Origin: a virus
Direction: 5' to 3' (one strand)
IMG/VR virus record: IMGVR_UViG_3300030389_004382
Span: 1 to 22,637 of that record
DNA length: 22,637 nucleotides
Translations under genes and position numbers: made by a program
Shown: piece by piece, positions 6,974-22,637 of the stretch
Layout: each line of letters starts with the position of its first letter
Numbering within the stretch: position 1 is the stretch's first letter
Notes under the pieces: model-generated
What the model saw: only the letters and a program-made list of their open reading frames with translations
Told to the model about the DNA's origin: nothing
Databases searched by the model: none

Positions 6974-9496
6974 TTAAAAAAACATTAAACCTGTTATTTG
7001 ATTTATAGGAGCAAAAGCACCTGTAAACTTATAAATATTTCCATTATACTTAAATACTAATCCTTCGGTTGGGACAATAGCATCAAACCCACCGATAGCA
7101 TTTAACCTATCCAATTGTATCTTTAACTTATTCAACTTCTTTAAGTTACCACCACTTCTTATATCAGAAATAGCAGACTTAAGTTTCTTTCTCATATTTT
7201 GTACAGACTTTGCTGGATTAACAGCCAACCACCCATCCATATTTTTCATTATTTCGGCACCGACTTCAAAGAACAATTCTTCGAATGGTTTCATATTTTC
7301 TTTGACCATCCTAGCATGGTCTAACTTATCTGTAGTCAAAGACCAATCTAAAAACTTATCGTTCTTTATTGTTGCTTTCATATCTCTTACTGAATATGAC
7401 TTATCAAAAAAAGCCCATCTCATCGTAAGTCTTTTGAGAACATTTGCTGGTATCTTATATTTAAATTGTTTGGCAGCATTAAAGATATACTCTTCCCAAA
7501 ACCTCTGATGATATAATCCAAGTGTGTCGTTATCTTTTAGTGCATACTGACTTTGTAATTTAGATAAACGACCATGAAACTTTTTCTTCATTTTACCAAA
7601 GTCTTGATGTTTAGGAACAGTAACAAAGTTAGGTTTGGATATTTTATAATGTTTCTGTATGTGTTGATTAACTTGCTTAATCATACCTTGTAACATTCTC
7701 GCACTATCCTTTGCCTGTCCTATTGGTCTACCACTATCATCATACTCTATTGCTCCATGAAAAAGTAACTCTGTAATATCATAGTTTACGACATTCTCAC
7801 TAGCAGGCCACATTACTTCTAAACTCATGAACTTACTACCATTACCAAAAATTTTATCTTGTTGTTTTTTAGATAGAGCACCGATTGCCTTTGATAAGTC
7901 CCTCATCGCATATACAAAAGCATTTCGTATAGCACCTCTACCTTTAAATTTTTTCTCTACATCTTTTATAGATAATGCTGTTTGACCTTTATTTTTAAGA
8001 TGTCCTTTGTTACGAGCAGCGATAAGTTTACCATCCTTGTAACTTATCATTAAGTTTTGACCATCAGTTTTCTCAGTAACATTATCTTCTCGGTCAAGTT
8101 TACCACTTAAACCTAACTCAATTATTTTTTTTAAATCTCCAAATGTCAAATCTTTATCGTCAAATGGATGATTCATGTGACCGTAAGCTCCTCCCATTAA
8201 TAATAACTCCTTTCCGTTTCTTGGTAAATCACTTGTGAGTGATAAAACTTCTTTTACTATTTCTAAATCATCATGTTGCTCATCACCTGTTCTAATTTTA
8301 GTTTCTTCTGGCTCCTCACTATCAAGTTTTTTTAATGTTTTGGGTGAATCATCAATCGTTATTTTTCTGGCTTTCTTCATAGGATCAACATACTGATAAT
8401 CTTGATTCGCAAGTATTTTATCAATGTGGTCTAACCAATGATTCCACAATTCACTTCCTACCAAATCCAAATCATTACCAGCACTTGGTTCAGCAACTCC
8501 AGCAGGTCCATATGATACCGAACCAATAGGACCATTTGGATATGCAGTATCCTTATAGAATGATGTGTCTTGACTGTTATAAGCATCTGTATCAGTTATG
8601 AGATTTGCTAACTCCCAACCCAATCTACCAGCCTCTACTTCTGCCCTATTCATATATGATCTCAAACTTGAAAACATACCAGGCCCATCATCTGTATCTA
8701 CACTTGCAATCTCACTCCCCTCAAAGAGGCCATGATAAACCTCGTATAATTTTCTAAATTTATTTGTCATCATATTATACACACCTTTATCGAAATATCC
8801 AAATGTTTTTTTAAAAAACTTTTGCCTTTCTTTATCGTCTATATTTGGATTACCCAACATATCCCTTGTTTTTGTTCCACTTATATTTCCAAATTGTGGA
8901 GCAGTAACAAAGTATCCGTGTTCTTCAAACCCTCTTATATCACCTTTACTTTTTTTATAATCTTGATAATAAGTTTTACCACCACCCTTTTTAGTTCCAG
9001 CTTTTAAACGACCAGCATCTTTTTGACCGAAAGCATAAACCACTGCCGTGGTTTCAGGATCAAACTTTTTAAGTAAGTTAGTTGCCACATAAGGTGTCTT
9101 TTCCTCAATAATACGATTCTTAGGAATACCAACCTTTACCATGTGACGAACTTTTTCCTTGAAGTTCATTGGATGTCGTGGTGGTTTCTTAATATTACTT
9201 GTGGTTATATAGGCTTCATCTACTTGAGATGCCAACCATTTATATGTGGCAAGATGACCTGAATGAAATGGTTGAAATCTACCACCGAATACACCGATAG
9301 TTTTTTTTATTTTGGTTGGTTGTTCATTTACTTTCTTATAACCACTACCATAAGGAACTGAGGTGTGTCCTTTCTTTTTCATCTTTTTTATTTTAGAGTA
9401 TCGTGAACCACCTTTGATAGTTCCATCACTAGCAACGATACCCATCTCGTCAATAACGGGTTTGGTTATTTCTTCTACTAACTTTTTTAAACTCAT
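6974..9496 (-). CDS. Fused HxGH adenylyltransferase and KxDG ligase-like protein
   Basis: An 840-residue protein with two nucleotidyl-transfer domains. Residues 67-215 or so form a cytidylyltransferase-like domain of the NMN adenylyltransferase type: G-V-F-G-G-R-F-Q-P-F-H-S-G-H at 68-81 and the C-terminal signature I-S-G-T-K-T-R at 205-211. Residues 430-840 look like an ATP-dependent RNA/DNA ligase catalytic domain: motif I E-K-T-D-G-Q-N at 475-481 with the likely adenylated Lys476, F-M-S-L-E-V at 556-561, motif IV E-G-L-V-F-K-Y at 811-817 and motif V around Lys823. About 200 residues between them are unassigned. The start overlaps the Nudix stop (ATGA). The leader S-L-K-K-L-V-E-E is loosely like that of the two genes before it. 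Similar fusions exist, as I recall, in marine T4-like phages; the substrate of either domain cannot be read from sequence. Confidence 0.9.
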   Translation of the reverse strand: MSLKKLVEEITKPVIDEMGIVASDGTIKGGSRYSKIKKMKKKGHTSVPYGSGYKKVNEQPTKIKKTIGVFGGRFQPFHSGHLATYKWLASQVDEAYITTSNIKKPPRHPMNFKEKVRHMVKVGIPKNRIIEEKTPYVATNLLKKFDPETTAVVYAFGQKDAGRLKAGTKKGGGKTYYQDYKKSKGDIRGFEEHGYFVTAPQFGNISGTKTRDMLGNPNIDDKERQKFFKKTFGYFDKGVYNMMTNKFRKLYEVYHGLFEGSEIASVDTDDGPGMFSSLRSYMNRAEVEAGRLGWELANLITDTDAYNSQDTSFYKDTAYPNGPIGSVSYGPAGVAEPSAGNDLDLVGSELWNHWLDHIDKILANQDYQYVDPMKKARKITIDDSPKTLKKLDSEEPEETKIRTGDEQHDDLEIVKEVLSLTSDLPRNGKELLLMGGAYGHMNHPFDDKDLTFGDLKKIIELGLSGKLDREDNVTEKTDGQNLMISYKDGKLIAARNKGHLKNKGQTALSIKDVEKKFKGRGAIRNAFVYAMRDLSKAIGALSKKQQDKIFGNGSKFMSLEVMWPASENVVNYDITELLFHGAIEYDDSGRPIGQAKDSARMLQGMIKQVNQHIQKHYKISKPNFVTVPKHQDFGKMKKKFHGRLSKLQSQYALKDNDTLGLYHQRFWEEYIFNAAKQFKYKIPANVLKRLTMRWAFFDKSYSVRDMKATIKNDKFLDWSLTTDKLDHARMVKENMKPFEELFFEVGAEIMKNMDGWLAVNPAKSVQNMRKKLKSAISDIRSGGNLKKLNKLKIQLDRLNAIGGFDAIVPTEGLVFKYNGNIYKFTGAFAPINQITGLMFF

Positions 9497-9927
9497 AAGT
9501 TTAATTCCAACACTTGTCTCATTCTATCTTCAAAAGGTCTTGGTAAACTATCTTTATCATAATAACCATAATCAACATGTTCATGGTCTAATGTAGGTTT
9601 AGGTTTACCATCCACCTCTGCTTTGAATATTTTTGTTAGACGATTATATACGCCGTCTTTTATCGTTCCTAAATATACTAAACTTTTAGGGTTAATGTCA
9701 AGCATTGTTTCTTCTTTTAATTCACGAGCAGCACCCTCTTTAAAAGTTTCTCCCTTTTCAACACCACCCATTGGAACAGACCAGAAGTTCGGATATTTGC
9801 CTTGGGTTTCAGAACGTTTTACACAAAGGACTTGACCTTCAGATACAACTGCAACACCAGCAACTTTTCTTGGCGGTTTTGTTAAATGATAGTCTCTTTC
9901 GTTCAATAAATCTTTCAATTTAATCAT
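9493..9927 (-). CDS. Nudix hydrolase with possible head-targeting leader
   Basis: A 144-residue pyrophosphohydrolase acting on some nucleoside diphosphate linked to X. The Nudix box runs from Gly54 to Leu76: G-x5-E60-x7-R68-E69-L70-x-E72-E73, with Met75 where Gly is usual. All metal-binding glutamates are present. Before it stands the usual strand G-V-A-V-V with the aromatic pair N-F-W. What is odd is the extra start, M-I-K-L-K-D-L-L-N-E-R, which is not part of the fold and is repeated in the gene upstream. L-L-N-E fits the (L/I)-x-E cleavage rule of gp21-type proteases. It overlaps both neighbours, eight bases upstream and ATGA downstream, with AAAGGA before the ATG. Next to an NMN adenylyltransferase-like protein, NAD-type compounds, dinucleotides or capped RNA are reasonable substrate guesses. 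Confidence 0.93.
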   Translation of the reverse strand: MIKLKDLLNERDYHLTKPPRKVAGVAVVSEGQVLCVKRSETQGKYPNFWSVPMGGVEKGETFKEGAARELKEETMLDINPKSLVYLGTIKDGVYNRLTKIFKAEVDGKPKPTLDHEHVDYGYYDKDSLPRPFEDRMRQVLELNL

Positions 9928-10739: not shown

Positions 10740-11849
10740 TTAACCTCTTGTTAAAATTGTATCTGTTTTTACTGCTAACCCAATTTTAATGCCTCTTGAG
10801 TGAAGAGAGTGACCTTCATTAACATATTGAGCTGAACCCGTTAACCAATGTATTTCATTTGAAATAGATAGTTGATCAGCAGAAAAACCGGAACTAGGAG
10901 TAATTAAACTAGCAGGTATATCACCTCTAATTCCACCCCTTAAAGTAACATTGCCTGATGAATCTTGAGATATACTCTGATTAGTTATACCTAAAAATTC
11001 ATTCCCATCTTCTAAAGCAAATATTTTACCACTTGAAGACATTTGAACAGGCACATAAGCATCAAGATTCTCTGCTGCAGTAAATGATGCTACTTTTGAA
11101 CTAACAGCTGCAGCTAACGAATTACCCGACAGTTGAACCTTGTCACTAAAAGACGCCGATTTTGTTAAAACTCTATATGGCATTGCTTTTGTAGTTTGAT
11201 CTCCTGCCCATAAATTATTTAGTCCAAAACTTTGAGCTGATGTATGATCGCTAGGTTCATTCTCACTAACAATACCATATCCAGCATCATTTGAAGTCCA
11301 TGCAGAAAATCGAGGATCATTATAATCAAGCAAAGAAGCAAAGGTTATGGCTTTACTGGCAGATATTTGTAAATTAGAACCTGTTAAAGAAACTTGTATA
11401 TCTAAAGTTTCATCTAATAAAGAAGAACCGCTTGGCAAATTATTACTTGTTACTATTAATTTAGTATTAGGTAAATTTATTGCTTGAAATATTCCTCTAT
11501 AATCAACATTTCCATTTCCAACAGTAGCATAAGAAGTATCATTCAAAGTGTATCCAGCTAAATCAATGTTCGCACTAAGTTTTGGACTTGTATCAGTCAC
11601 CACATCTTTGACTATATTAGTTATACTACCAATACCATCACCAGATATAGAACCAAATGAACCAGTTGAAGTTGATGAACCGCTTATATTATAATTACCA
11701 CTAGAAAAGTCAACGTCACCTGATAAATTTATACCAAAACTAGAAGTTAAATTCGCACCAATGTTTTCTAAAGGTAAAGTAATTTGGTCAATTGACATTG
11801 AAACAAAACCATCAGACAATAAACTAGCATTATTTTTTACTTTACTCAT
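10740..11849 (-). CDS. Fibre-like virion protein, S-D-G-F family, 369 residues
   Basis: This is the last of three consecutive proteins sharing an N-terminal layout: S-D-G-F near residue 12, a beta-rich stretch, a full I-S-G-S-S-T-S-T-G-S-F-G motif around 55-66, then G-D-G and D-T-S-P-K-L-S-A-N-I-D-L. The body is Ser/Thr/Gly/Asn-rich, as in phage fibres. The C-terminal 120 residues form a separate beta domain (V-P-V-Q-M-S-S-S-G-K, F-L-G-I-T, G-N-V-T-L-R-G-G-I-R-G-D) whose counterpart appears at the end of the 295-residue protein. Its ATG overlaps that gene's stop (ATGA). I infer an N-terminal virion-attachment part and a variable distal part. There is no chaperone-type C-terminal domain. Which structure it decorates, tail or capsid, cannot be told. 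Confidence 0.85.
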   Translation of the reverse strand: MSKVKNNASLLSDGFVSMSIDQITLPLENIGANLTSSFGINLSGDVDFSSGNYNISGSSTSTGSFGSISGDGIGSITNIVKDVVTDTSPKLSANIDLAGYTLNDTSYATVGNGNVDYRGIFQAINLPNTKLIVTSNNLPSGSSLLDETLDIQVSLTGSNLQISASKAITFASLLDYNDPRFSAWTSNDAGYGIVSENEPSDHTSAQSFGLNNLWAGDQTTKAMPYRVLTKSASFSDKVQLSGNSLAAAVSSKVASFTAAENLDAYVPVQMSSSGKIFALEDGNEFLGITNQSISQDSSGNVTLRGGIRGDIPASLITPSSGFSADQLSISNEIHWLTGSAQYVNEGHSLHSRGIKIGLAVKTDTILTRG

Positions 11850-12733
11850 TCTATAGGCCTCAATATTATAGTTTCTCCGTCAATAGCATTTCCAGCAACA
11901 ACTGGTCCAGATGCTAAGTCTATGGATGCCGTTTGATAACTTCCGTCACTTTTAATAAAATACTTACTACCAGTTATAAATCCGACACCATCAGGAGTTA
12001 AACTTCCAGTTACATTTGCTTTAAATCCTCTTAAAATTATCTTGGCAGTGCCAGAACTAGCATAATCATCTTTTGAAACTCCTAAAAATGTTTTCGTTAT
12101 ACCATTACCTAATTTTGAAACTGAACCACCTGAGTTTATTTTTACTGGATCACCTTTTATTAAAGCATCTGTAGTTACAAAAGTTAAAGTTGATGTGGAT
12201 TCTATTGTATCATCGAGACTATCTCCGTTAATATCAACAAAGTCAGACTCTAAATTGATGTGTTCACCACCGGCTTGAACACCCATTGTTTTGAATTCTT
12301 CAACATAAAAATCTTTTGCAAAAGTCTCATCATACAATTCTACTTTTTTCCAAATATTTATGTAATCACTTCCGCTTATTTCTTTAAAGAAAACACTACC
12401 AGAAGGAACATCTAAATTAAAAGATCCAGATAATTGAAAATTACCAATATCTAAATGACCACCTAATTGTGGTGATGAATCATCTGAGGTAGATACTGCA
12501 TCAGTTGTAATATTTGCACCATCACCTATTAATTTTCCAAAAGAAGCAGTAGACCTAAGAGAACCAGAAATATTCGTTCCTATAGTGATGTCATTATTAC
12601 TGATAAAGTTACCACTAGCTGTTATATTAAGAGTTGTTTTTATACTACTAGTTGATGTAAGCATATCGTTAGCAATGTTGGTTGTTAAAAAACCATCACT
12701 AACTATTTTTACTCTATCTTGTTGTTTACTCAT
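11846..12733 (-). CDS. Fibre-like virion protein, S-D-G-F family, 295 residues
   Basis: The middle member of the trio. The start reads K-I-V-S-D-G-F-L-T-T, nearly the same as the 1505-residue protein (N-L-V-S-D-G-F-L-T-T). It then has a diverged S-G-S-L-R-S-T-A-S-F-G-K-L-I-G-D-G and D-S-S-P-Q-L-G-G-H-L-D-I. The C-terminal half is a beta domain (G-D-P-V-K-I-N-S-G-G, F-L-G-V-S-K-D-D, A-K-I-I-L-R-G-F-K-A) typical of small phage decoration or fibre-tip units. TAATG joins it to the gene before and ATGA to the gene after, with AAGAGA as its ribosome site, which suggests tightly linked synthesis. I infer a short fibre or a head decoration protein that uses the same docking region as the giant neighbour. 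Confidence 0.85.
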   Translation of the reverse strand: MSKQQDRVKIVSDGFLTTNIANDMLTSTSSIKTTLNITASGNFISNNDITIGTNISGSLRSTASFGKLIGDGANITTDAVSTSDDSSPQLGGHLDIGNFQLSGSFNLDVPSGSVFFKEISGSDYINIWKKVELYDETFAKDFYVEEFKTMGVQAGGEHINLESDFVDINGDSLDDTIESTSTLTFVTTDALIKGDPVKINSGGSVSKLGNGITKTFLGVSKDDYASSGTAKIILRGFKANVTGSLTPDGVGFITGSKYFIKSDGSYQTASIDLASGPVVAGNAIDGETIILRPIE

Positions 12734-15700
12734 TATCTCTTTATTTGTAATAATAATTCAGTTTCACTTGTAGCAATACCCACTTCTAATGAAGAAGAAT
12801 TGTGAGTATAAATGCCAGTGCCATCTTCTATAAATACTCTTTTACCAGGAGTAAATGTATTTAGTGTGTTGTCTACATCGGCTTGTTCACCGAAAGAACC
12901 TGAAGTAAATTCTCCTGTTTGTACGGGTATTAATCTATTTCCTGAACCACTTATTAAACTACTTGTAACTTGTAAAATTTGACCTTCAAATTTTAATTTC
13001 ACCCTACTTCCAGATTGCATATATTCAGGAATTTCAGTATTAATAGAGTCTGTTGCTCCTATAATTTTGTCTTTAAAATCATCATTTGTTCTAGGATCGT
13101 CTATCACACTCGTTATGTAAGCTCTATAATGATTATCTTGACCTACATCAGTTGAAAGGTCACTTGGTAAAAATTGTTTCTGATAACTTCCCCAAGAATG
13201 AAATATAAGTGTATTACCATCATCAGAGTATATTGGAACCAGTGAATTTGGTCTGTATGTTTGAAGTTGGCCGTTCATGTTAAAAAAACAATCTATTAGT
13301 GGTGCAGGAGATTCTCTATGTCCATTATGAGTTCCACTTGGTGATATCTCAGCAAGATTAGCCTTATTTGTATCATCACCTTCCATCTGTCCCGAAATTT
13401 GATTACCATAATCACTTTTATCCATTGACCAATAAACACCAGTTAGTTCATGTGTGTGACCGTCAGTATCCGAAGGACTAAAGCCGTGAGAGGAGGGTTG
13501 TCTGTTAAACAAATTACCAGTGTTAAAACCAGTGTTCCCGTTTATTTGGGCTATTAAAGGAGGATATTCCATACGATAATCATCATTACTGTAATCAGGT
13601 CTTTTATGATAACCACTTTGTTTTGGATGGTCTAAAAATATTCTATAAGTTACGAGGATTTGTTTGATAGAGTCATTACTGCTAGAATTGGTTTCATTTT
13701 GAGTCCCAACAATCATATGAAGAAAAATACAAGTTGTTCCATTCCACTTTTTTATAGTAGGAGTAAGTATCATAGGAATGCCTGTGCTGCAAAATGTATT
13801 TGAAAATTTAGTTCTTGAACTGTAATCTGAATACCCAAAAGCGAATGCAGGCGGTGAAACAGCAAAAAAACCAATTCTTCCTCTTTCTTTTTCTATAAAA
13901 CCCCAATTTGACCATATATAACTGTATCGATTACTACTGGTACTATTACTTCTCTGTAATGCATTTACATAAACTACACCATTGCTAACTTTGACATCAA
14001 CGGCAGTTAAATAATCGTTTAAACTGGTAGAAGGCACACCTTCATCAGACATTTCTAAAAGTGATTGTACATTTAATATGTTTCCGTTTGATAATGCTAA
14101 GGCATATTTCCATCCATTATTGTATAGTGCACTATTATTATAGCCACCACCACCTAATACAAATACAAATCTATCCGTTGTTTTATCATATGCTACTTTA
14201 TTTAACCTACGAGTAAAATCATGATATTTTCTGCCATATATAGTGCTAGTATCTGAAACACTATCGGTTTGACCGCTAGAAAATTGAGACAAACCAGGAA
14301 AATTATAGAGTGTTCTAGAATTACCATAAGCATCTTTATCAAAAGAAGCACTTATACCATAATCAAAGGTTCCCGATACTGAACCTGTGTATGGACTTGG
14401 TGCAGAACCCATACTGCCTGTTAAAATCATATCAGAACCGGAAGTTATTGTTGTTCCATCAACAAAACAAACATTATATTTTCTAACATCACCATCATCA
14501 CTTGACCGATATGAAGTAACACCAGAGAGATAGTTTTGCCAAACGTTAACGAAAGCACCAGAACCACTTGTGCAAAGACCTGGTCCTCCTTGTATACAAC
14601 CAAAATCTTGTAAAGAAGACGATTGTGCTCCATAACTCAATCGATAATCAGCACCAACACTCCAAGTATCATTTGTTTCATCAACATCAAATATTTTAGC
14701 ATGAAGTGGTCCTGTTGTACTACCACTCAAATATGTTATTACAAATTTGTTTACTCCATCAAATTTTGCGACATTAGCAAAATACATACTTGCCGTATCA
14801 GGTGTTAAGACTTGACCTAATGAATGACCTAATCCTATTGAACCAGAATGTGGTATTTCTTGTTGATATAAATCAGCTGCATTTGACCTTGAAACATGGA
14901 GTTCCTCAGGAGTAACTTTCATTTGTTCACTATCGTAGCTGGCAGTAGTGTAGGAATAAAAGTCTATTTTGTAACAACCAAACTTTGGAAATTGAGATGG
15001 ATACAAGTAAATGTATTTATCGGCATTTGTTAAACCAAACCCAAAAGATAGTTGTCCATGTTGAGCCTCATATACAGATTTTCTAAATCTGTAATCAAAA
15101 CCAAAATAATCATTTGCATCAACTGTGGTATTATTGGTTGTGTCTAATTGACCAAAATGAGGTATGTTTGATGATGGTAAAGATGATGGTAAATCAAATG
15201 ATCCTTGCCCAACACCAAGTTTTGGATTAAATCCATAACATGTTTGATTTTGACCGCCATGATGATGACCAGATAACACCGATTCTAATCTATCTGTACT
15301 TGGATTCCTATAAACTAAAGAGCTTCTATATAATGGACTAGCAACATGATGGCCCGTTGTATTTGATGTACTTGCATTTATGGTATTATTGAGATCAGCC
15401 CCACCTAACGTTATTTTATCAAACGAACCTGTTTTAACAGTTAATTTATTAGAAACGTTTATATGTGAACTTGCAGTTACTTCATTTTTAAATCTTAATT
15501 TATGTGCAATTAAATCATGTCGTTTAGAATTTACTGGTTGTGGTCCAGAACCAATTGTTTCAGCTGAATATCCTCTACCCTCATCATAGGAAACTTGAAC
15601 CATCATGTGGGTTGAACTAGAACCTGAACCCATAGAAAAAAGTAAATCCCCATTCTGTAACACATGCATGTTATCTATGAATCTACCATAAGTATAACCA

Positions 15701-17250
15701 GGTCTTGCATTGTTAACGTCAGTCAAAAGTTGACTTCTTTCATTTTCTGGAAAAAAATCAAAAATAGATTTTGAAACTGTTGTTTTTGCCATCATTGTTC
15801 TGATATTCCAAGGAATAAGCAAATCTGATTGAAATAACATTGTTTGTAATCTTGGATTATTTGTGGCTATATCGCCTTGATAATTATCCTGCTCTTGAGT
15901 ACACCAAATAATTCTTCTACCATCATTAACTACTTGAAATCCTCTAGTTGAGTACCAAGTACCATTACCAGTTATCGTAGGTTCATCATCTGCAAAATCA
16001 GCAAAAGCAGAACCATATCCTCCTGGTATATCTGCATAAAAACTGTTTACATCTGCTCCACTCCAGTATATTGTATTATCTACTCCTTGAATTTGAGACT
16101 CGAAAAAAGGATCTGAAAAGAAGAATTGTTGAAAATCTACTACTCCGTCAGTCGTATCTTCATAATCAATAAAAGCAGGACCCATTTGAGTTCTTCCGTC
16201 TGGTTTCATGATTAAATTAGCCCATCTTCTTTCGTATCGTGAATTATAATCATGAGTTGAAAGTTGTCTACTATCTAAAAATAAACCTTTATAATTGTCG
16301 CTATCTTGACTGTAATCATCATTAGCATCAGTTTGACTTCTAAAAAAATTAGTTAAACTTCCTATATGTCTATCAGTTGTACCATTTGGACTAAAAATAC
16401 TTTCAGAATTATAATTGTAATCTGAACTAGCACTATAAAAATCGATATGAGGTCTATAGTAATTTGTGCTACCACCTGACCTCATATGAAACACACCGTA
16501 AACTTTTCCTTTTGCTTTGTCCACTACAATATTAAAATCTTGCATAGCCGCGTTTCCACCTAATGCAGCAGCTGATGTATAACTTCTAGATGTAGTAGCT
16601 CCGAGTGTGAATATTTGGTTACCAACTTGGCCAGTAAAACCTCTTATATCCCATTTACCACCGTAATTATCATAATCATAACCAGCTAATATACCAACGA
16701 GATGAGCATGTTGTGAATATAATATTCCGTATCTTCCATTTCTCTCAAGTGGTGATAAAATTGAGTTTTGGTAATTATCTTGATTAAAGGGCACGTAATT
16801 ACCACTTCCCCCTCGAAGATCCCAAAGATCTCTTGTTACGGCACTTTCATCTTTTAAATTTCTTAAATCCCAACCACCACCAGAAATAGCTTTAAAATTT
16901 AAATTAGCTGTTTGAGATGTTTCTAAAGTTTTATCAACACTACTGGTAGTAAAAATTTGATTCTCATTTAAGTCTAAATTAGCACTTAGTTTTGGAGTAG
17001 AATCACCTGACATTTCAAATGTCATATTTGTCAATTCACTACCATCACCAATAATCTTACCAAAAGAACCTTCAGATGTTACATGCAAATCACCACTTGT
17101 TATATCTATATTACCATCAACTTTAAGACCACTTCCACTAAAGCTAGCACTAACTAAAAGACTTCCAGTATGATTTATTTTAGTGTTGGATAAATCTGTT
17201 GTGAGAAAACCATCAGAAACTAAATTTGCCTGTTGTCGTGTTTTGCCCAT
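12733..17250 (-). CDS. Giant fibre or adhesin, S-D-G-F family, 1505 residues
   Basis: This is the largest gene in the window. Residues 1-100 hold the trio's docking layout: N-L-V-S-D-G-F-L-T-T, a weak motif copy S-E-G-S-F-G-K-I-I-G-D-G, and D-S-T-P-K-L-S-A-N-L-D-L. The 1,300 or so residues after it are rich in Tyr, Asn, Ser, Gly and Asp, with no motif copies and no membrane segment. They look like one or more large beta structures. S-Y-D-E-G-R-G-Y near residue 555 resembles a sialidase-type Asp box, and S-S-D-D-G-D near 917 is weaker, so a propeller is possible but unproven. The C-terminus (R-V-F-I-E-D-G-T-G, V-G-I-A-T-S-E-T-E-L-L-L) is a small beta unit recalling the ends of the two smaller proteins. 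AGGATATAGGG precedes the ATG. It is probably the main host-contact protein. Confidence 0.88.
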   Translation of the reverse strand: MGKTRQQANLVSDGFLTTDLSNTKINHTGSLLVSASFSGSGLKVDGNIDITSGDLHVTSEGSFGKIIGDGSELTNMTFEMSGDSTPKLSANLDLNENQIFTTSSVDKTLETSQTANLNFKAISGGGWDLRNLKDESAVTRDLWDLRGGSGNYVPFNQDNYQNSILSPLERNGRYGILYSQHAHLVGILAGYDYDNYGGKWDIRGFTGQVGNQIFTLGATTSRSYTSAAALGGNAAMQDFNIVVDKAKGKVYGVFHMRSGGSTNYYRPHIDFYSASSDYNYNSESIFSPNGTTDRHIGSLTNFFRSQTDANDDYSQDSDNYKGLFLDSRQLSTHDYNSRYERRWANLIMKPDGRTQMGPAFIDYEDTTDGVVDFQQFFFSDPFFESQIQGVDNTIYWSGADVNSFYADIPGGYGSAFADFADDEPTITGNGTWYSTRGFQVVNDGRRIIWCTQEQDNYQGDIATNNPRLQTMLFQSDLLIPWNIRTMMAKTTVSKSIFDFFPENERSQLLTDVNNARPGYTYGRFIDNMHVLQNGDLLFSMGSGSSSTHMMVQVSYDEGRGYSAETIGSGPQPVNSKRHDLIAHKLRFKNEVTASSHINVSNKLTVKTGSFDKITLGGADLNNTINASTSNTTGHHVASPLYRSSLVYRNPSTDRLESVLSGHHHGGQNQTCYGFNPKLGVGQGSFDLPSSLPSSNIPHFGQLDTTNNTTVDANDYFGFDYRFRKSVYEAQHGQLSFGFGLTNADKYIYLYPSQFPKFGCYKIDFYSYTTASYDSEQMKVTPEELHVSRSNAADLYQQEIPHSGSIGLGHSLGQVLTPDTASMYFANVAKFDGVNKFVITYLSGSTTGPLHAKIFDVDETNDTWSVGADYRLSYGAQSSSLQDFGCIQGGPGLCTSGSGAFVNVWQNYLSGVTSYRSSDDGDVRKYNVCFVDGTTITSGSDMILTGSMGSAPSPYTGSVSGTFDYGISASFDKDAYGNSRTLYNFPGLSQFSSGQTDSVSDTSTIYGRKYHDFTRRLNKVAYDKTTDRFVFVLGGGGYNNSALYNNGWKYALALSNGNILNVQSLLEMSDEGVPSTSLNDYLTAVDVKVSNGVVYVNALQRSNSTSSNRYSYIWSNWGFIEKERGRIGFFAVSPPAFAFGYSDYSSRTKFSNTFCSTGIPMILTPTIKKWNGTTCIFLHMIVGTQNETNSSSNDSIKQILVTYRIFLDHPKQSGYHKRPDYSNDDYRMEYPPLIAQINGNTGFNTGNLFNRQPSSHGFSPSDTDGHTHELTGVYWSMDKSDYGNQISGQMEGDDTNKANLAEISPSGTHNGHRESPAPLIDCFFNMNGQLQTYRPNSLVPIYSDDGNTLIFHSWGSYQKQFLPSDLSTDVGQDNHYRAYITSVIDDPRTNDDFKDKIIGATDSINTEIPEYMQSGSRVKLKFEGQILQVTSSLISGSGNRLIPVQTGEFTSGSFGEQADVDNTLNTFTPGKRVFIEDGTGIYTHNSSSLEVGIATSETELLLQIKR

Positions 17251-17263
17251 ATAACCCTATATC

Positions 17264-18322
17264 CTATGGAAGTGCTAAAACATAGGCAAGAGGAGCACAC
17301 TCATCACCACCCCAATCTAAATATACAGTATTGCTACTAGTTCTAGCAAATAAATCATAAGTATATGATTGACCAGGAGTTAATCCAGTAATTATTCTTT
17401 CAGGATGAACTGTTTTATCATCTGCTTCTCCATCACTATAGGTCGTATAGTCAGAATAAGTTGTACTTGGACTTGTTCCTTGTAGAGCCCACTTAAAATA
17501 AACTCTTCTACTAGTAGAGGAAAAGTCTATGTGTATTTGAGCATGAAGTAAAACTTTACCACTTGCTGGTGCGTCAAATGTTAATCTATAGTAATCAGAA
17601 TTAAAAGCAACATAACTTGTAGTTAGCGTATATGTAAGAGTTCCAGAAGTAGTATCGCTATAACCATCTTGTGCAGCAATTATCCCACCACCACTACCAG
17701 CAGAAACTTCCTCTCCACCTAGTAAAATTTTACCAAAGGAAGCAGTCGAATTTACAGAACCACTTACTCCACCATCAACATATAGTTTACCCGTTGATGG
17801 TGTGAAAGATAAGTCATCTGTATTAATACTAGCGCTTACTAAATTACCACTTGTAAAATCAGGATCAGATGTAAACATTGGAAATAAAGAAGATGTAGTA
17901 GCAGTATCAGGTGTTATATTTAAATGAGTACCAGTTGATATAGTTTCAAAAGCAACAAATTCTAAAACATCATTTACAGTTGCACCAGATGATAAAACAA
18001 CAGAAGTTCCGTTTGTTGCGGTTACTTCAGTTGAATCTAATTTTATACCATTTTGATATACATCAAGTAAACTAGCACCGTAATTTACATTAAATGTAGT
18101 TTGTCCAGAAGTAGCAACAGACCTTGTGACAGTTCTTGAAGTTGATGTTCCACCACCAGAACCGCCGCCTGTTCCAAAACCACTAGCAGCTGCTGATTCT
18201 GATACAGCAGTTGTAAAGTTGTTTCCACCAACCATGACATGTCCAAAAGAACCAGTTGAAGTTAATGAGCCGCTTATATCTCCAACAATTGAACCAGTAA
18301 TATTGGGTGTGTGTATTTTCAT
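17264..18322 (-). CDS. Modular tail-fibre protein, 352 residues
   Basis: Four parts can be seen. Residues 1-55 carry one S-G-S-L-T-S-T-G-S-F-G motif and a spacer ending S-G-F-G-T-G-G-G-S-G-G-G. Residues 60-130 match a domain I know from many marine phage fibres (T-S-G-Q-T-T-F-N-V-N-Y, V-Y-Q-N-G-I-K-L, A-T-N-G-T-S-V-V-L). A second, altered motif S-G-S-V-N-S-T-A-S-F-G follows near residue 190. The C-terminal 130 residues (G-K-V-L-L-H-A-Q-I-H-I-D-F-S-S, I-T-G-L-T-P-G-Q-S-Y-T-Y, Y-L-D-W-G-G-D, ending A-L-P) are a beta domain seen at fibre ends. The glycine run is a likely hinge. A TGGAAAA site precedes the ATG. The first 55 residues share long exact DNA with the partial gene at the right edge, which suggests gene conversion. 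Confidence 0.85.
   Translation of the reverse strand: MKIHTPNITGSIVGDISGSLTSTGSFGHVMVGGNNFTTAVSESAAASGFGTGGGSGGGTSTSRTVTRSVATSGQTTFNVNYGASLLDVYQNGIKLDSTEVTATNGTSVVLSSGATVNDVLEFVAFETISTGTHLNITPDTATTSSLFPMFTSDPDFTSGNLVSASINTDDLSFTPSTGKLYVDGGVSGSVNSTASFGKILLGGEEVSAGSGGGIIAAQDGYSDTTSGTLTYTLTTSYVAFNSDYYRLTFDAPASGKVLLHAQIHIDFSSTSRRVYFKWALQGTSPSTTYSDYTTYSDGEADDKTVHPERIITGLTPGQSYTYDLFARTSSNTVYLDWGGDECAPLAYVLALP
18192..18235 (-). repeat. 44-base exact repeat shared between two fibre genes, copy 1
   Basis: Identical to 21239-21282 in a different gene about 3 kb away. With one or two mismatches the match extends through the following motif copy and back into the glycine-rich hinge. It encodes V-G-G-N-N-F-T-T-A-V-S-E-S-A. 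Confidence 0.95.
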
Positions 18323-18341
18323 TTACGATTTTCCATTTTAA

Positions 18342-18350
18342 TATAAATAT
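18342..18350 (+). promoter_or_regulatory. TATAAATAT element before the 352-residue fibre gene
   Basis: Third copy, again on the plus strand, 20 bases upstream of the ATG at 18322 in a 28-base gap. Three of the four gaps in the window carry this exact string. Confidence 0.25.
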
Positions 18351-18599
18351 TTAGCCTGTATGTGGATACCATAAGTATTTTGTTATCTCTGATGCGCTTT
18401 TTAACAAATTTTCTTTAGTTGTGCCATGGTCATTAACTCCAAATTCAAATAAATCTAACCATGCTTGTATTTCAGAAACAGTCCATGAATCATCTGGTTT
18501 TGTTCCTTTAATTGTTCCGATTTCTACATACTCTTTTAACATCAAATAAGTTGTAAAATCAAGTTCCCTTCCAAATTCACCTTCTGTGTATTTAAGCAT
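18351..18599 (-). CDS. Unknown 82-residue protein between fibre genes
   Basis: I do not recognise this protein. It is acidic and helical, with W-T-V-S-E-I-Q-A-W-L-D-L-F-E-F-G-V-N-D-H-G in the centre and an aromatic end, K-Y-L-W-Y-P-H-T-G. It contains neither the S-T-G-S-F-G motif nor the Ser/Thr/Gly bias of every neighbour, so it is probably not part of the fibre shaft. The start overlaps the preceding stop as TAATG with GAGGTAG upstream, so it is made together with the 383-residue fibre. Small unrelated genes inside fibre clusters often encode fibre assembly helpers or caps; that is the most reasonable guess here, without sequence support. Confidence 0.8.
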   Translation of the reverse strand: MLKYTEGEFGRELDFTTYLMLKEYVEIGTIKGTKPDDSWTVSEIQAWLDLFEFGVNDHGTTKENLLKSASEITKYLWYPHTG

Positions 18600-19750
18600 T
18601 AATCTACCTCTTCAGTTTTGATTATTATTTGTAAATTGGCCATGTACCAATCATTACCACCACTATCTTGAGTTCCATCATGATGATGTTGAATTCCACA
18701 TACTATTAGATCACCTTTTTCTAAAATGAGACTACCAGACCTATGTAGATAATCTTTCATATTACCAGGCACGGTTCCTGTAGCAGTTTGTTGGGTAACA
18801 TGATATTGTGGATCTGTCCAAGTAGAGGCTTCTGCTTTAAAGTAAAATTGACCATCTGGTTCATGGAAGGCGGTACTTGTATCAGAATCCCAGCTTGGAT
18901 GTTGGAATACATTTGTATTACCTGAGCTAGATACTAGGTTTCCACCACCACCGCCAGTGTCTGTCAGTCCAAATTTTTGTATTATATGACTTCTACTTGG
19001 TTGCATTTGGTCAGAAGTAGGACATGACCAAAACCCTATAGGAGTGTCGCTACCCATTGTATTTGTTGCTGAGCCACTATTGTTTAAACTTACAGAATGT
19101 CCGCTAAATATGCTTCCAGTTTTACAACCCCTAGACCACGCATTAGCAGTTGGGGCGTCTGCATTACCACCAGTGAAAACTGCCATACCAACAGGTATTC
19201 GTGCTTGTGCCTCAGATGTTGTGCTAGTATAAGGCCTGTAAGCATCTGCGTCATTACAGATTAGAAACATCAAAACAAGATTATTTTGAGCTCTTAGGTA
19301 ACAGCTTCCTGCAGCAAATACTTCTTTGATTTGCACTTTTGTTGGAGCCACATAATTAGCACCTGATTTTCTAGTTATATGATACTCAAAAAGACTGTAA
19401 GGACCAGTACTGGTGGAGGTGCTTTCATCCAATTTGTATAGCCATCCGGCCGTTCTACTTGTATCTGATTCCTGATATTTCACTTTCGCATTGTAGCTAC
19501 CCCAAATAACATCCCAATAATCTCCGCCGTAGCTATCAGTACCTGTGGCAGACAATATGCGATGAGTTTGCGTTACTGTAGAAATACCACCGCCGCCGCC
19601 TGTCCCAAAACCACTAGCAGCTGCTGATGAAGAAACTGCTGTATCAAAATTATCTCCACTAACTATTAAGTGTCCAAATGAACCTGTTGTATCAAGAGAA
19701 CCACTAACTTGACCACTTGCCGTAATATGTGATGATGCTATAATTGGCAT
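18599..19750 (-). CDS. Modular fibre or adhesin, 383 residues
   Basis: The N-terminal 55 residues repeat the neighbours' pattern: S-G-S-L-D-T-T-G-S-F-G-H-L-I-V-S-G, then S-S-A-A-A-S-G-F-G-T-G-G-G-G-G, a probable virion-docking part plus glycine hinge. The remaining 325 residues form a distinct domain that I do not recognise, with several cysteines (in G-S-C-Y-L-R-A-Q, F-L-I-C-N-D, F-W-S-C-P-T), a His-rich H-H-H-D segment near residue 358, and a beta-strand ending L-Q-I-I-I-K-T. The His and Asp cluster could hold a metal. The ATG overlaps the stop of the partial gene (TAATG), with GAGGAAA upstream. I infer a receptor-binding tip that has been swapped onto a common base. Confidence 0.85.
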   Translation of the reverse strand: MPIIASSHITASGQVSGSLDTTGSFGHLIVSGDNFDTAVSSSAAASGFGTGGGGGISTVTQTHRILSATGTDSYGGDYWDVIWGSYNAKVKYQESDTSRTAGWLYKLDESTSTSTGPYSLFEYHITRKSGANYVAPTKVQIKEVFAAGSCYLRAQNNLVLMFLICNDADAYRPYTSTTSEAQARIPVGMAVFTGGNADAPTANAWSRGCKTGSIFSGHSVSLNNSGSATNTMGSDTPIGFWSCPTSDQMQPSRSHIIQKFGLTDTGGGGGNLVSSSGNTNVFQHPSWDSDTSTAFHEPDGQFYFKAEASTWTDPQYHVTQQTATGTVPGNMKDYLHRSGSLILEKGDLIVCGIQHHHDGTQDSGGNDWYMANLQIIIKTEEVD

Positions 19751-22637
19751 TACTTAATTTCCTCTAGTTTAAATTTATACTTTTTACCGTTCTTTCTATT
19801 CAATAAATATAAGTCATCTTCACCTTCCTGAATTGTCCATGAACCCGTTGTTCCATCTACTTCGTTTCCTTCTGTACCTTCATTGGATAGTTCTATATCA
19901 CCAATGTGAGCATTTGCCCATCTATGAGTTGATGAACCTAAATCATGAGTGTTATCAATACTAGGAATGAAATCATTACTATATACTCCAAACGAACCAC
20001 TTGATTGAGCAGAACCACTTAAATTCCCACCTACAGAGAAATGGGCTTTACCTGATACAGGCGAATCAAATGTTATAGTTGAACTAGATATTGTATTAGC
20101 AACGATACTACTCGGTATAATTACTTCATCATCACCATCGTAAACAGTCACATTTGGATATTGTGAGTTCAAATTATGAGTCACATTCCAAGTTGTTCCA
20201 GCAGATTCTTTTGAAAATGTAACTCCGCCAAAATCGGCAACAACAGTTTCTGGATTTTCTAAAGTTGTTACTCTCGTTGATATAGAAGATGATATTATTT
20301 TAATATCAGGTTGTGATAAATCAGCAACTCTTAGGTTACCAAACGAACCAGTTGAGGTTAATGAGCCACTTATATCCCCAATAATATTTACATTACCTGT
20401 ACCAGTAATATCATTAGAATTAAGGTCTAAATCTCCACCAAGTTGTGGTGATGTGTCATCAACAATATCAGACACTCCACCACTTCCACCACTAGCAAGA
20501 GAAGCAGATGTGAAGTGTCCACCACCAATCATCAATGAACCAAAAGAACCAGTTGAGGTCAATGAGCTGCTTATATTGCCAGTAGCAGTTAAGGAACTCA
20601 CATTAATTAAATTATTACCATCTAAATTAATATCTTGAGTTGCTGTATGATTTCCTAAATTATCACCACCAGCAACAGCAGCTGCCAATGAAGAAGACAC
20701 ATTAGGAAAACCTGGTATACTTAAAGTACCACCAATATTTGAAGCACCAGCAGTTTCTAATTTTCCAAATGAACCAGTTGAGGTTGATGAACCACTTATA
20801 GCTCCTCCTATTTGTATATTTTGACTGTCATCAATGATTAATCCGGCATTTCCACCATTTGTAGCTAAAGTCATTACATCATTTGTAACTTGAATATAAT
20901 TTCCGTTGTTTACTGAATTATTATCTTCTAATATTATTCTTGCAGTAGCATCGCTACTTTTAAATTTAGCAATATTATCTGCTGCTGTTAAAATGTGAAG
21001 ATCATTAAAAGGAGTTGTAGTTCCAATGCCTAATCTATCTGTAATATGAACTCTTTCAAATGAACCAGTTGAAGTTGATGAACCACTTATGTTTCCATTA
21101 ATGGTAATATTACCAGTGCCTGTAATATCATTAGAATTAAGGTCTAAATCTCCACCAAGTTGTGGTGATGTGTCATCAACAAGGTCATTCATATCACCAC
21201 CACCAGCTCCACCACCAGTTCCAAAACCACTCGCAGCGGCTGATTCTGATACAGCAGTTGTAAAGTTGTTTCCACCAACCATAACATGTCCAAACGAACC
21301 TGTTGAGGTTGCCGAACCACTTACTCTAGTTACATCATCTATCGTACCACCATTAATGTCAGGACTTGTTAAAGTTTTATTTGTTAATGTATCAGTTGTG
21401 TTTGTACCAATTAATGTGGTGGTTGTAGCTGGTAAAGTTACTGTTACATTTCCCCCAAAATCCGCATGTGCTGGTGCTTGTAGAGCTACATAATGAGCGT
21501 TGTTTACCTCACAATATAATCTAATTTGTGATTCAACACCTTGATTGTGAACACTTACATATCCACCATCTATATTTAAATTACCCGAAGCGTTGAGATA
21601 TCCGAATGAACCTGTTGACGATGCCGAACCACTAATATTACCACCAAAATTTGACAAATCATTTTTTAAAATATTACCTTGGTTACCCATACCACTATGA
21701 ACATTACATTTATAGAATAAACGATTTGCTGTAGTTTTATTTACCTGCAATTCTGTGTAGGCACCAGTTGTTCCAGGTGTTCCGTTTGTGGTAACACCAG
21801 TGGTGTAAGTAGAACCATCCTCTGTTAAACTAAATCTAAATGGATGACCATCATTTGAACTATCTGATTGGTCGAAACGATAAGTTTTTCCTTCACTAAC
21901 GACCAAATTTGGAGTGGTTGCACCTTCAAAAGCAAAATGATCACCACCATCGTCTACTACAGTCACTTTTATTATTTCAGTAATGTTACCGATTATTCTA
22001 CCTGGAGTTGTAGTAGTGACTTGTCCAAACGAACCAGTTGAAGCTGCTGAGCCACTTATCAGTTGTGCTCTCAGATGAAGTGTTCCAGCAGTATCCGATA
22101 CACCTATTCGTGTATTTGTTCCACTATGTCCATAAGATAAAAATTTATCACCAGAAGGACCTTTAATGTAAAATCCTTCAACTCCATCATATCTAGCTTT
22201 AATATAGGATGTGTAATAATTATTTGCATCTGCATTTGCAACTATAGCTATACCAGCTTCTGAACTTGCTCCATAAATGATTAATTCTTCTGCAGTTGTT
22301 CCATTGTTGGTATTATTTTGTGGTTGTATGAATAATTGTCCTTGTATATCAGCATGACTATCAGTAAATAATTTACCAAACGAACCAGTTGAGGTTGATG
22401 AACCACTTATGTTGCCACTCGCAGTAATATGTGTGATATTATTTATATCAAAACCACCAAGATTGATGTCTTGAGTTGCGGTATGATTTCCTAAATTATC
22501 ACCTCCGGCAACGGCAGAAGCTAATGAAGCAGATACATCTGAAAAACCTGAGATACTTAATTTACCATCAATATTAGAATTACCACTAACTTCAATCCTA
22601 CCAAACGAACCAGTTGAAGTTGCTGAACCACTTATTG
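19750..22637 (-). CDS. Multi-module tail fibre with cupredoxin-like insert, 5' end beyond window
   Basis: The frame stays open to the right edge, so the start is missing; at least 961 residues are present. A GTG at 21966 is internal, because the frame and the motif pattern continue upstream of it. Ten S-G-S-x-x-S-T-G-S-F-G motifs punctuate the chain, with modules of 67, 75, 78, 97, 104, 117 and 141 residues between them. Recognisable modules are G-D-N-L-G-N-H-T-A-T-Q (twice), T-D-T-L-T-N-K-T-L-T-S-P, D-T-S-P-Q-L-G-G-D-L-D-L (twice) and G-I-G-T-T-T-P, all common in phage fibres. The longest module (21640-22024) holds a cupredoxin-like segment. The last 40 residues are charged and end K-Y-K-F-K-L-E-E-I-K. 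It probably forms a long trimeric fibre shaft; that is inferred from the composition and repeats. Confidence 0.88.
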   Translation of the reverse strand, partial: ISGSATSTGSFGRIEVSGNSNIDGKLSISGFSDVSASLASAVAGGDNLGNHTATQDINLGGFDINNITHITASGNISGSSTSTGSFGKLFTDSHADIQGQLFIQPQNNTNNGTTAEELIIYGASSEAGIAIVANADANNYYTSYIKARYDGVEGFYIKGPSGDKFLSYGHSGTNTRIGVSDTAGTLHLRAQLISGSAASTGSFGQVTTTTPGRIIGNITEIIKVTVVDDGGDHFAFEGATTPNLVVSEGKTYRFDQSDSSNDGHPFRFSLTEDGSTYTTGVTTNGTPGTTGAYTELQVNKTTANRLFYKCNVHSGMGNQGNILKNDLSNFGGNISGSASSTGSFGYLNASGNLNIDGGYVSVHNQGVESQIRLYCEVNNAHYVALQAPAHADFGGNVTVTLPATTTTLIGTNTTDTLTNKTLTSPDINGGTIDDVTRVSGSATSTGSFGHVMVGGNNFTTAVSESAAASGFGTGGGAGGGDMNDLVDDTSPQLGGDLDLNSNDITGTGNITINGNISGSSTSTGSFERVHITDRLGIGTTTPFNDLHILTAADNIAKFKSSDATARIILEDNNSVNNGNYIQVTNDVMTLATNGGNAGLIIDDSQNIQIGGAISGSSTSTGSFGKLETAGASNIGGTLSIPGFPNVSSSLAAAVAGGDNLGNHTATQDINLDGNNLINVSSLTATGNISSSLTSTGSFGSLMIGGGHFTSASLASGGSGGVSDIVDDTSPQLGGDLDLNSNDITGTGNVNIIGDISGSLTSTGSFGNLRVADLSQPDIKIISSSISTRVTTLENPETVVADFGGVTFSKESAGTTWNVTHNLNSQYPNVTVYDGDDEVIIPSSIVANTISSSTITFDSPVSGKAHFSVGGNLSGSAQSSGSFGVYSNDFIPSIDNTHDLGSSTHRWANAHIGDIELSNEGTEGNEVDGTTGSWTIQEGEDDLYLLNRKNGKKYKFKLEEIK
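20405..20465 (-). repeat. 61-base exact direct repeat, copy 1
   Basis: Identical base for base to 21122-21182, 717 bases away and in the same reading frame. It encodes the D-T-S-P-Q-L-G-G-D-L-D-L-N-S-N-D-I-T module. Synonymous positions are also unchanged, which indicates a recent duplication or gene conversion. Confidence 0.95.
21122..21182 (-). repeat. 61-base exact direct repeat, copy 2
   Basis: Partner of 20405-20465. The flanks diverge within a few codons on the 3' side, while a motif copy follows shortly on the other side in both places. Confidence 0.95.
21239..21282 (-). repeat. 44-base exact repeat shared between two fibre genes, copy 2
   Basis: Partner of 18192-18235. A third, more diverged version lies at the start of the 383-residue gene (about 19595-19674). 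Confidence 0.95.

What the first reader, a model, noticed from the sequence alone, without database searches (positions are those of the whole stretch)
21640..22024. Cupredoxin-like domain inside a tail fibre
Between two S-T-G-S-F-G motifs lies a segment with Y-R-F-D-Q-S-D, D-G-H-P-F-R-F-S and Y-K-C-N-V-H-S-G-M-G. His (codon 21844-21846), Cys (21706-21708), His (21697-21699) and Met (21688-21690) are arranged like the type 1 copper ligands of plastocyanin-type proteins, including the closely spaced C-x2-H-x2-M. I recall related segments in other marine phage fibres, so the domain may be recurrent, but its role in a virion (metal-stabilised fold, redox-sensitive tip, or copper-dependent receptor contact) is not something I know to be described.
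Basis: partly seen in the sequence, partly recalled or inferred. Interest (0 to 1): 0.65.

Follow-up and report, generated by a model that had tools for sequence, protein, structure and literature searches.

The report
Copper-protein fold inside phage tail fibres
A module found in the tail fibres of many ocean viruses that infect bacteria has the predicted shape of plastocyanin-type blue copper proteins, and in nearly every copy it keeps the four amino acids that hold the copper atom, so these virus particles probably carry copper in their tails.

Summary
The His, Cys, His and Met codons lie exactly where stated, in a 109-residue domain (window 21658-21984, minus strand) of an STGSFG-cassette fibre gene. 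A deep AlphaFold2 model (pLDDT 97.2, pTM 0.90) matches cupredoxins: all 50 listed PDB hits are cupredoxins or cupredoxin-domain enzymes (best Foldseek E 1.1e-4; best VIA Z 9.7). In a 105-sequence alignment of viral and cellular relatives, the only invariant columns are those four residues. A search with the ligand-free N-terminal half found His1 plus CxxHxxM in 49 of 50 complete domains. The family links to plastocyanin/pseudoazurin through intermediates (hhalign 98.9% and 96.8%), but the domain itself does not reach Pfam Copper-bind.

It is recurrent: over 600 IMG/VR stretches, plus phages of Prochlorococcus, Synechococcus, Pelagibacter and Methylophilales, and also marine bacterial and archaeal lipoproteins and giant adhesins. 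A few phage copies (S-WAM1 clade, Sf-CH1b, L258) have lost the site.

Best explanation: a genuine type 1 copper-site cupredoxin module in the virion, most likely a metal-locked rigid knob in the fibre; redox or receptor roles are untested. No copper has been measured. I found no published description in the open-access papers searched. New variant of a known kind.

The parts
19750..22635 (-). STGSFG-cassette fibre gene, 961 aa in the window, 5' end cut by the window edge
   Evidence: Open frame to the window end; the relative L003 has a complete 1782-aa version; the domain matches phrog_30742 'tail fiber protein' at E 4.8e-25
21658..21984 (-). Cupredoxin-fold domain, 109 aa (P0001 residues 218-326)
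   Evidence: AlphaFold2 pLDDT 97.2, pTM 0.90; all listed PDB fold matches are cupredoxins; coordinates
21844..21846 (-). His1, first proposed copper ligand (domain H47)
   Evidence: Codon checked; invariant in 105/105
21706..21708 (-). Cys ligand (domain C93), the only Cys of the domain
   Evidence: Codon checked; invariant; 103 of 105 homologues have exactly one Cys
21697..21699 (-). His2 ligand (domain H96)
   Evidence: Codon checked; invariant in 105/105
21688..21690 (-). Met ligand (domain M99), short loop C-x2-H-x2-M
   Evidence: Codon checked; invariant in 105/105
22024..22041 (-). STGSFG linker motif before the domain
   Evidence: Direct reading; one of about ten such motifs in P0001
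21601..21618 (-). STGSFG linker motif after the domain
   Evidence: Direct reading

Best explanation
The segment is a complete cupredoxin domain with an intact type 1 copper site (His47, Cys93, His96, Met99 of the domain; short amicyanin-type C-x2-H-x2-M loop), carried as one cassette of a modular phage tail fibre. The shared four-ligand constraint implies that the domain binds one metal ion, most likely copper, probably picked up after lysis or from host Cu(I). In the virion I think the metal mainly locks the beta-sandwich as a rigid, proteolysis-resistant knob or spacer in the fibre or baseplate. Shown: sequence, predicted fold, ligand conservation, recurrence. Inferred: copper binding (about 0.8), presence in the virion (about 0.9), mainly structural role (about 0.45).
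For: Fold: pLDDT 97.2, pTM 0.90 with the secondary-structure placement of a type 1 site; the top 50 Foldseek PDB hits are all rusticyanin, pseudoazurin, plastocyanin, laccase or nitrite-reductase cupredoxin domains; VIA Z 9.7, rmsd 2.4 over 96 residues to the N-terminal region (residues 25-132) of 2dv6. Ligands: the only invariant columns in 105 sequences; 49/50 with a query lacking all ligands; cell copies chosen only by the C-H-M pattern keep His1 in 52/52, and those chosen only by the FDQ pattern keep C/H/M in 23/23. Homology: A3 to intermediates 98.9% and intermediates to plastocyanin/pseudoazurin 96.8% with Cys and His2 aligned in both steps (His1 aligned in the first step), direct 80%; a 148-aa Prochlorococcus protein scores over the Pfam Copper-bind cut-off and also matches A3 at 2.6e-10. 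A single Cys per domain leaves no disulphide within the domain. For a general rather than host-specific role: found in phages of unrelated hosts and in fibre, spike, baseplate-connector and other virion proteins.
Against: No metal was measured. The direct sequence match to Pfam Copper-bind is absent for the window copy, and profile matches to PDB cupredoxins are E 0.1 to 0.5. The residue after His1 is Pro in 96%, not the Asn usual in plastocyanins. Some phages keep the domain without the Cys-His-Met loop, so the metal is not always needed. Virions are assembled in the cytoplasm, where free copper is scarce. The AlphaFold2 coordinates could not be read, so the ligand-to-ligand distances are not shown.
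Confidence: 0.6

Rival explanations
1. The domain binds copper, but its main task is recognition: the metal-loaded knob contacts a host surface structure or exploits a host copper-uptake receptor, as proposed for iron in the 'Trojan Horse' (Ferrojan) idea for phage tails.
For: The domain sits in tail fibres and baseplate connectors. Metal in tail fibres has precedent: T4 gp37 HxH iron sites and the marine phage R22Y, as reported in PMC11705849.
Against: The same module occurs in phages of Prochlorococcus, Synechococcus, Pelagibacter and Methylophilales and in several kinds of virion proteins, which does not suggest one receptor. No HxH motif is present in P0001.
Confidence: 0.2
2. The domain is a redox or copper-handling site (electron transfer, copper buffering or protection from Cu/ROS) that acts in the virion or in the host envelope during entry.
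For: The full type 1 ligand set is kept. Cell homologues sit on lipoproteins and surface proteins in the compartments where cupredoxins work. Some carriers also encode plastocyanin itself (P-SSM2).
Against: No redox partner domain is recognised beside it; Pfam finds nothing in P0001. Pro after His1 should change the usual second sphere of the copper (knowledge of type 1 sites).
Confidence: 0.15
3. The domain is an Ig-like or other beta-sandwich with no metal; the four residues are conserved for folding or for chemistry other than copper (Zn, inter-chain disulphide).
For: Annotators called relatives Ig V-set (PF07686) in P-HM1 and P-HM2; a weak Pfam Cna_B match (E 0.07) exists; ligand-free copies exist.
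Against: Fold matches are cupredoxins throughout the list. The precise His...Cys-x2-His-x2-Met set is the only invariant feature of the family. One Cys per domain rules out a disulphide within the domain.
Confidence: 0.08

Closest known systems
Small type 1 blue copper proteins: plastocyanin, pseudoazurin, amicyanin, rusticyanin (cupredoxin superfamily; Pfam PF00127 Copper-bind, PF13473 Cupredoxin_1)
   Same: Predicted fold, order of ligands His...Cys..His..Met, position of Cys at the end of the penultimate strand; the C-x2-H-x2-M loop has the amicyanin spacing (amicyanin spacing from general knowledge).
   Different: Not recognised by the Pfam models; HP instead of the usual HN at His1; a long GVTTxGTPGxxGAY insertion region before the last strands; a module inside large fibre or adhesin proteins rather than a free electron carrier.
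N-terminal region (residues 25-132) of Hyphomicrobium denitrificans copper nitrite reductase (2dv6, Z 9.7)
   Same: Best fold match; a cupredoxin carried as a domain of a larger protein.
   Different: Part of an enzyme that moves electrons; 19% sequence identity.
T4 gp37 tail-fibre tip with HxH iron sites, and the proposed iron sites of Alteromonas phage R22Y (PMC11705849)
   Same: Metal bound in a phage tail fibre.
   Different: Iron held between three chains by HxH motifs in a needle; here a folded single-chain copper-type site and no HxH motif.
Second cupredoxin-like domain type in cyanophage tail spikes and baseplate wedge tail-fibre connectors (P-SSM2 YP_214529, S-SSM4 YP_007677250)
   Same: Same HPF...C-x2-H-x2-M plan; profile match 98.9%; 107 phage records.
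   Different: Closer to canonical cupredoxins in sequence (near the Pfam cut-off), without the FDQSD signature.

Membership tests
Cupredoxin superfamily with type 1 copper site | Greek-key beta-sandwich fold of cupredoxins | tested here: met
   AlphaFold2 pLDDT 97.2; Foldseek and VIA lists made of cupredoxins
Cupredoxin superfamily with type 1 copper site | Ligand set His...Cys-x2-His-xn-Met in the right order and strand positions | tested here: met
   Codons and predicted strand positions
Cupredoxin superfamily with type 1 copper site | Ligands jointly kept among homologues | tested here: met
   105/105; 49/50 with ligand-free query. Exceptions: S-WAM1 clade, Sf-CH1b and L258
Cupredoxin superfamily with type 1 copper site | Four ligand side chains within bonding distance of one point | tested here: inconclusive
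   Model coordinates are not exported; only strand positions are known
Cupredoxin superfamily with type 1 copper site | Bound copper with a type 1 spectrum | not testable with these tools
   Needs protein
Pfam PF00127 Copper-bind (plastocyanin/azurin) | Score over the curated cut-off (21.2 bits) | tested here: not met
   No match for the window domain; 6 of 56 homologues weakly, best E 0.019. Intermediates do pass
Plastocyanin | C-x2-H-x4-M loop and His-Asn at the first ligand (general knowledge) | tested here: not met
   Loop is C-x2-H-x2-M; Pro follows His1 in 96% of homologues
Phage tail fibre protein | Matches annotated tail fibre or virion proteins of isolated phages | tested here: met
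   phrog_30742; tail fibre genes of P-SSM2, Bellamy, Mosig, Melnitz, Baldr
Phage tail fibre protein | Present in the virion | not testable with these tools
   No proteomics available for this uncultured phage
Ig V-set (PF07686) | Match to the Ig profile and fold | tested here: not met
   Pfam finds no V-set match in the window copy or the listed homologue families; fold matches are cupredoxins

The most novel reading that the evidence does not exclude
A widespread class of marine phages carries true blue-copper (type 1) sites in tail fibres and baseplates, making the virion a copper metalloprotein particle whose adsorption or stability depends on copper and redox state, so that copper in seawater tunes infection.
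Probability: 0.25. Interest if true: 0.85.

Novelty: new variant of a known kind. Interest (0 to 1): 0.62.

Why it matters
If copper is really bound, a large share of ocean phages would carry a metal site in their host-contacting apparatus that present annotation calls 'tail fibre', 'hypothetical' or 'Ig-like'. It gives a directly testable handle on how trace copper could influence phage stability or adsorption, on phages as copper ligands in seawater (the iron version is already debated), and on the origin of a domain family shared by phages and surface proteins of SAR86, Prochlorococcus, Bacteroidota and marine archaea.

Tried and rejected
Direct Pfam and PDB sequence searches with the window domain gave no significant hit; only profiles and fold reached cupredoxins. 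A bare C-x2-H-x2-M DNA match is at chance level, so the motif alone was not used as evidence. Selection bias in the homologue sets was a concern, because the first search patterns contained ligand residues; it was removed with an N-half query. A structure prediction of the ligand-free S-WAM1-type copy (L275) gave only pLDDT 64.9, so whether that copy keeps the cupredoxin fold stays open. A disulphide was rejected because 103 of 105 domains have a single Cys. A cyanophage origin for the window was considered, but its portal is nearest to Flavobacterium phage immuto and Microcystis phage Mel-JY01. Literature searches for cupredoxin or plastocyanin-like domains in phage tails or virions found nothing relevant; subscription papers were not searchable.

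Full report
Observation. The window is a 22,637-base virus record. On the minus strand, 22635..19750 is an open frame of 961 aa, cut at its 5' end, made of cassettes separated by STGSFG-type motifs. The C-x2-H-x2-M spacing as a DNA pattern is at chance level in the window, so the motif alone proves nothing.

Recurrence. A single-sequence tblastn finds the domain in 42 phage records, from Synechococcus, Prochlorococcus, Pelagibacter and Methylophilales phages, mostly in tail fibre or virion structural genes. IMG/VR holds more than 600 stretches. P-SSM2 alone has five matching domains, including weak ones, as well as a plastocyanin gene. A second, related type occurs in 107 phage records, in tail spikes and baseplate wedge tail-fibre connectors. 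The family also occurs in cellular genomes. There it sits at the end of lipoproteins with an ACGGGG lipobox in Gammaproteobacteria, in marine group II archaeal secreted proteins with collagen-like repeats, and in giant adhesins of Bacteroidota and Photobacterium.

Ligand conservation. In 173 domains from virus and genome loci all four ligands are kept. In a 105-sequence alignment the only invariant columns are H47, C93, H96 and M99. Because search patterns could bias this, two checks were made. First, in the cellular set, domains selected only by the C-H-M pattern all keep His1 (52/52), and domains selected only by the FDQ pattern all keep C, H and M (23/23). Second, a query made of the N-terminal half without any ligand found 50 complete distinct domains, of which 49 have both His1 and C-x2-H-x2-M; one (L258) lost Cys and His2 but kept His1 and Met. 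Among isolate phages, S-WAM1 and Sf-CH1b have lost Cys, His2 and Met but keep His1, and S-WAM1 has a clade of IMG/VR relatives with the same loss. So the site is kept as a unit, with rare losses in which at least Cys and His2 go together.

Fold. AlphaFold2 with the 105-sequence alignment gives pLDDT 97.2 and pTM 0.90. His47 lies before strand 49-52, Cys93 ends strand 88-93, and His96 and Met99 lie in the loop before strand 104-108. Foldseek against the PDB returns rusticyanin (E 1.1e-4), pseudoazurin, plastocyanin, two-domain laccases and copper nitrite reductase in all 50 listed rows. VIA gives Z 9.7, rmsd 2.4, 96 residues to the N-terminal region (residues 25-132) of 2dv6. In the viral structure library 69 proteins match at E 0.001 or better. 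Coordinates are not exported, so ligand distances were not measured.

Homology. Direct sequence matching to Pfam or PDB cupredoxins is below significance. Profile comparison links the family to an intermediate group at 98.9% and the intermediate group to plastocyanin/pseudoazurin at 96.8%. Cys and His2 are aligned in both steps, His1 in the first; the direct comparison gives 80%. A 148-aa Prochlorococcus protein is over the Pfam Copper-bind cut-off and matches the A3 profile at 2.6e-10. I therefore place the domain in the cupredoxin superfamily, not in the plastocyanin family: the Pfam cut-off is not met, the ligand loop is the short C-x2-H-x2-M form, and Pro, not Asn, follows His1 in 96%.

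Mechanism. The constraint on exactly the type 1 ligand set, one Cys per domain, and an extracellular setting in both virions and cells make copper binding the likely reading (about 0.8). Virions are built in the cytoplasm, so copper would be taken from host Cu(I) or, more likely, from the medium after lysis; preformed cupredoxin sites permit this (knowledge of apo-cupredoxins). Because the module appears in many fibre, spike, connector and other virion proteins and in phages of unrelated hosts, I favour a general structural role as a metal-locked rigid module over recognition of one receptor. The occasional loss of the site shows that some fibres do without the metal. A recognition role, similar to the iron 'Trojan Horse' idea discussed in PMC11705849, and a redox role are not excluded.

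Context and literature. Nearby genes encode prohead protease, portal, large terminase and endolysin. The portal is nearest to Flavobacterium phage immuto and Microcystis phage Mel-JY01 at 49 to 54%, so the window phage is a T4-like myovirus of uncertain host. Searches of the open-access library found no description of a cupredoxin or plastocyanin-like domain in phage tails or virions. Relatives in P-HM1 and P-HM2 are annotated as Ig V-set, which the fold search does not support.

Noticed in passing
window 6974-9496 (-): An 840-aa protein begins with a cytidylyltransferase-like domain (PF01467, with GRFQPFHSGH) and later holds EKTDGQNLMISYKDGKLIAARNKGH, which resembles a KxDG nucleic-acid ligase motif: a possible nucleotidyltransferase-ligase fusion, with a NUDIX gene (9493-9927) directly upstream of it in the same orientation.
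   Followed up: partly
window 10740-22635 (-): Five of the six genes in this stretch (all but 18351-18599) share STGSFG/STASFG cassette motifs; relatives such as L003 carry different cassettes between the same linkers, as expected of module shuffling in fibres.
   Followed up: partly
L190 3001-3342 (P-SSM2 tail spike) and L191 1501-1785 (S-SSM4 baseplate connector): A second cupredoxin-like domain type is common in cyanophage tail and baseplate proteins (107 records) and lies close to the Pfam Copper-bind cut-off.
   Followed up: partly
L274-L278, L282 (relatives of S-WAM1): A clade keeps His1 but has replaced the Cys-His-Met loop by a longer loop without metal ligands.
   Followed up: partly
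L176 (Prochlorococcus marinus MIT 9201 genome, 148 aa): A small free-standing protein is over the Pfam Copper-bind cut-off and also matches the fibre-domain profile; it may be near the cellular origin of the family.
   Followed up: no
L185, L186 (P-HM1, P-HM2): These copies are annotated as PF07686 Ig V-set, probably a mis-assignment of a cupredoxin domain.
   Followed up: partly
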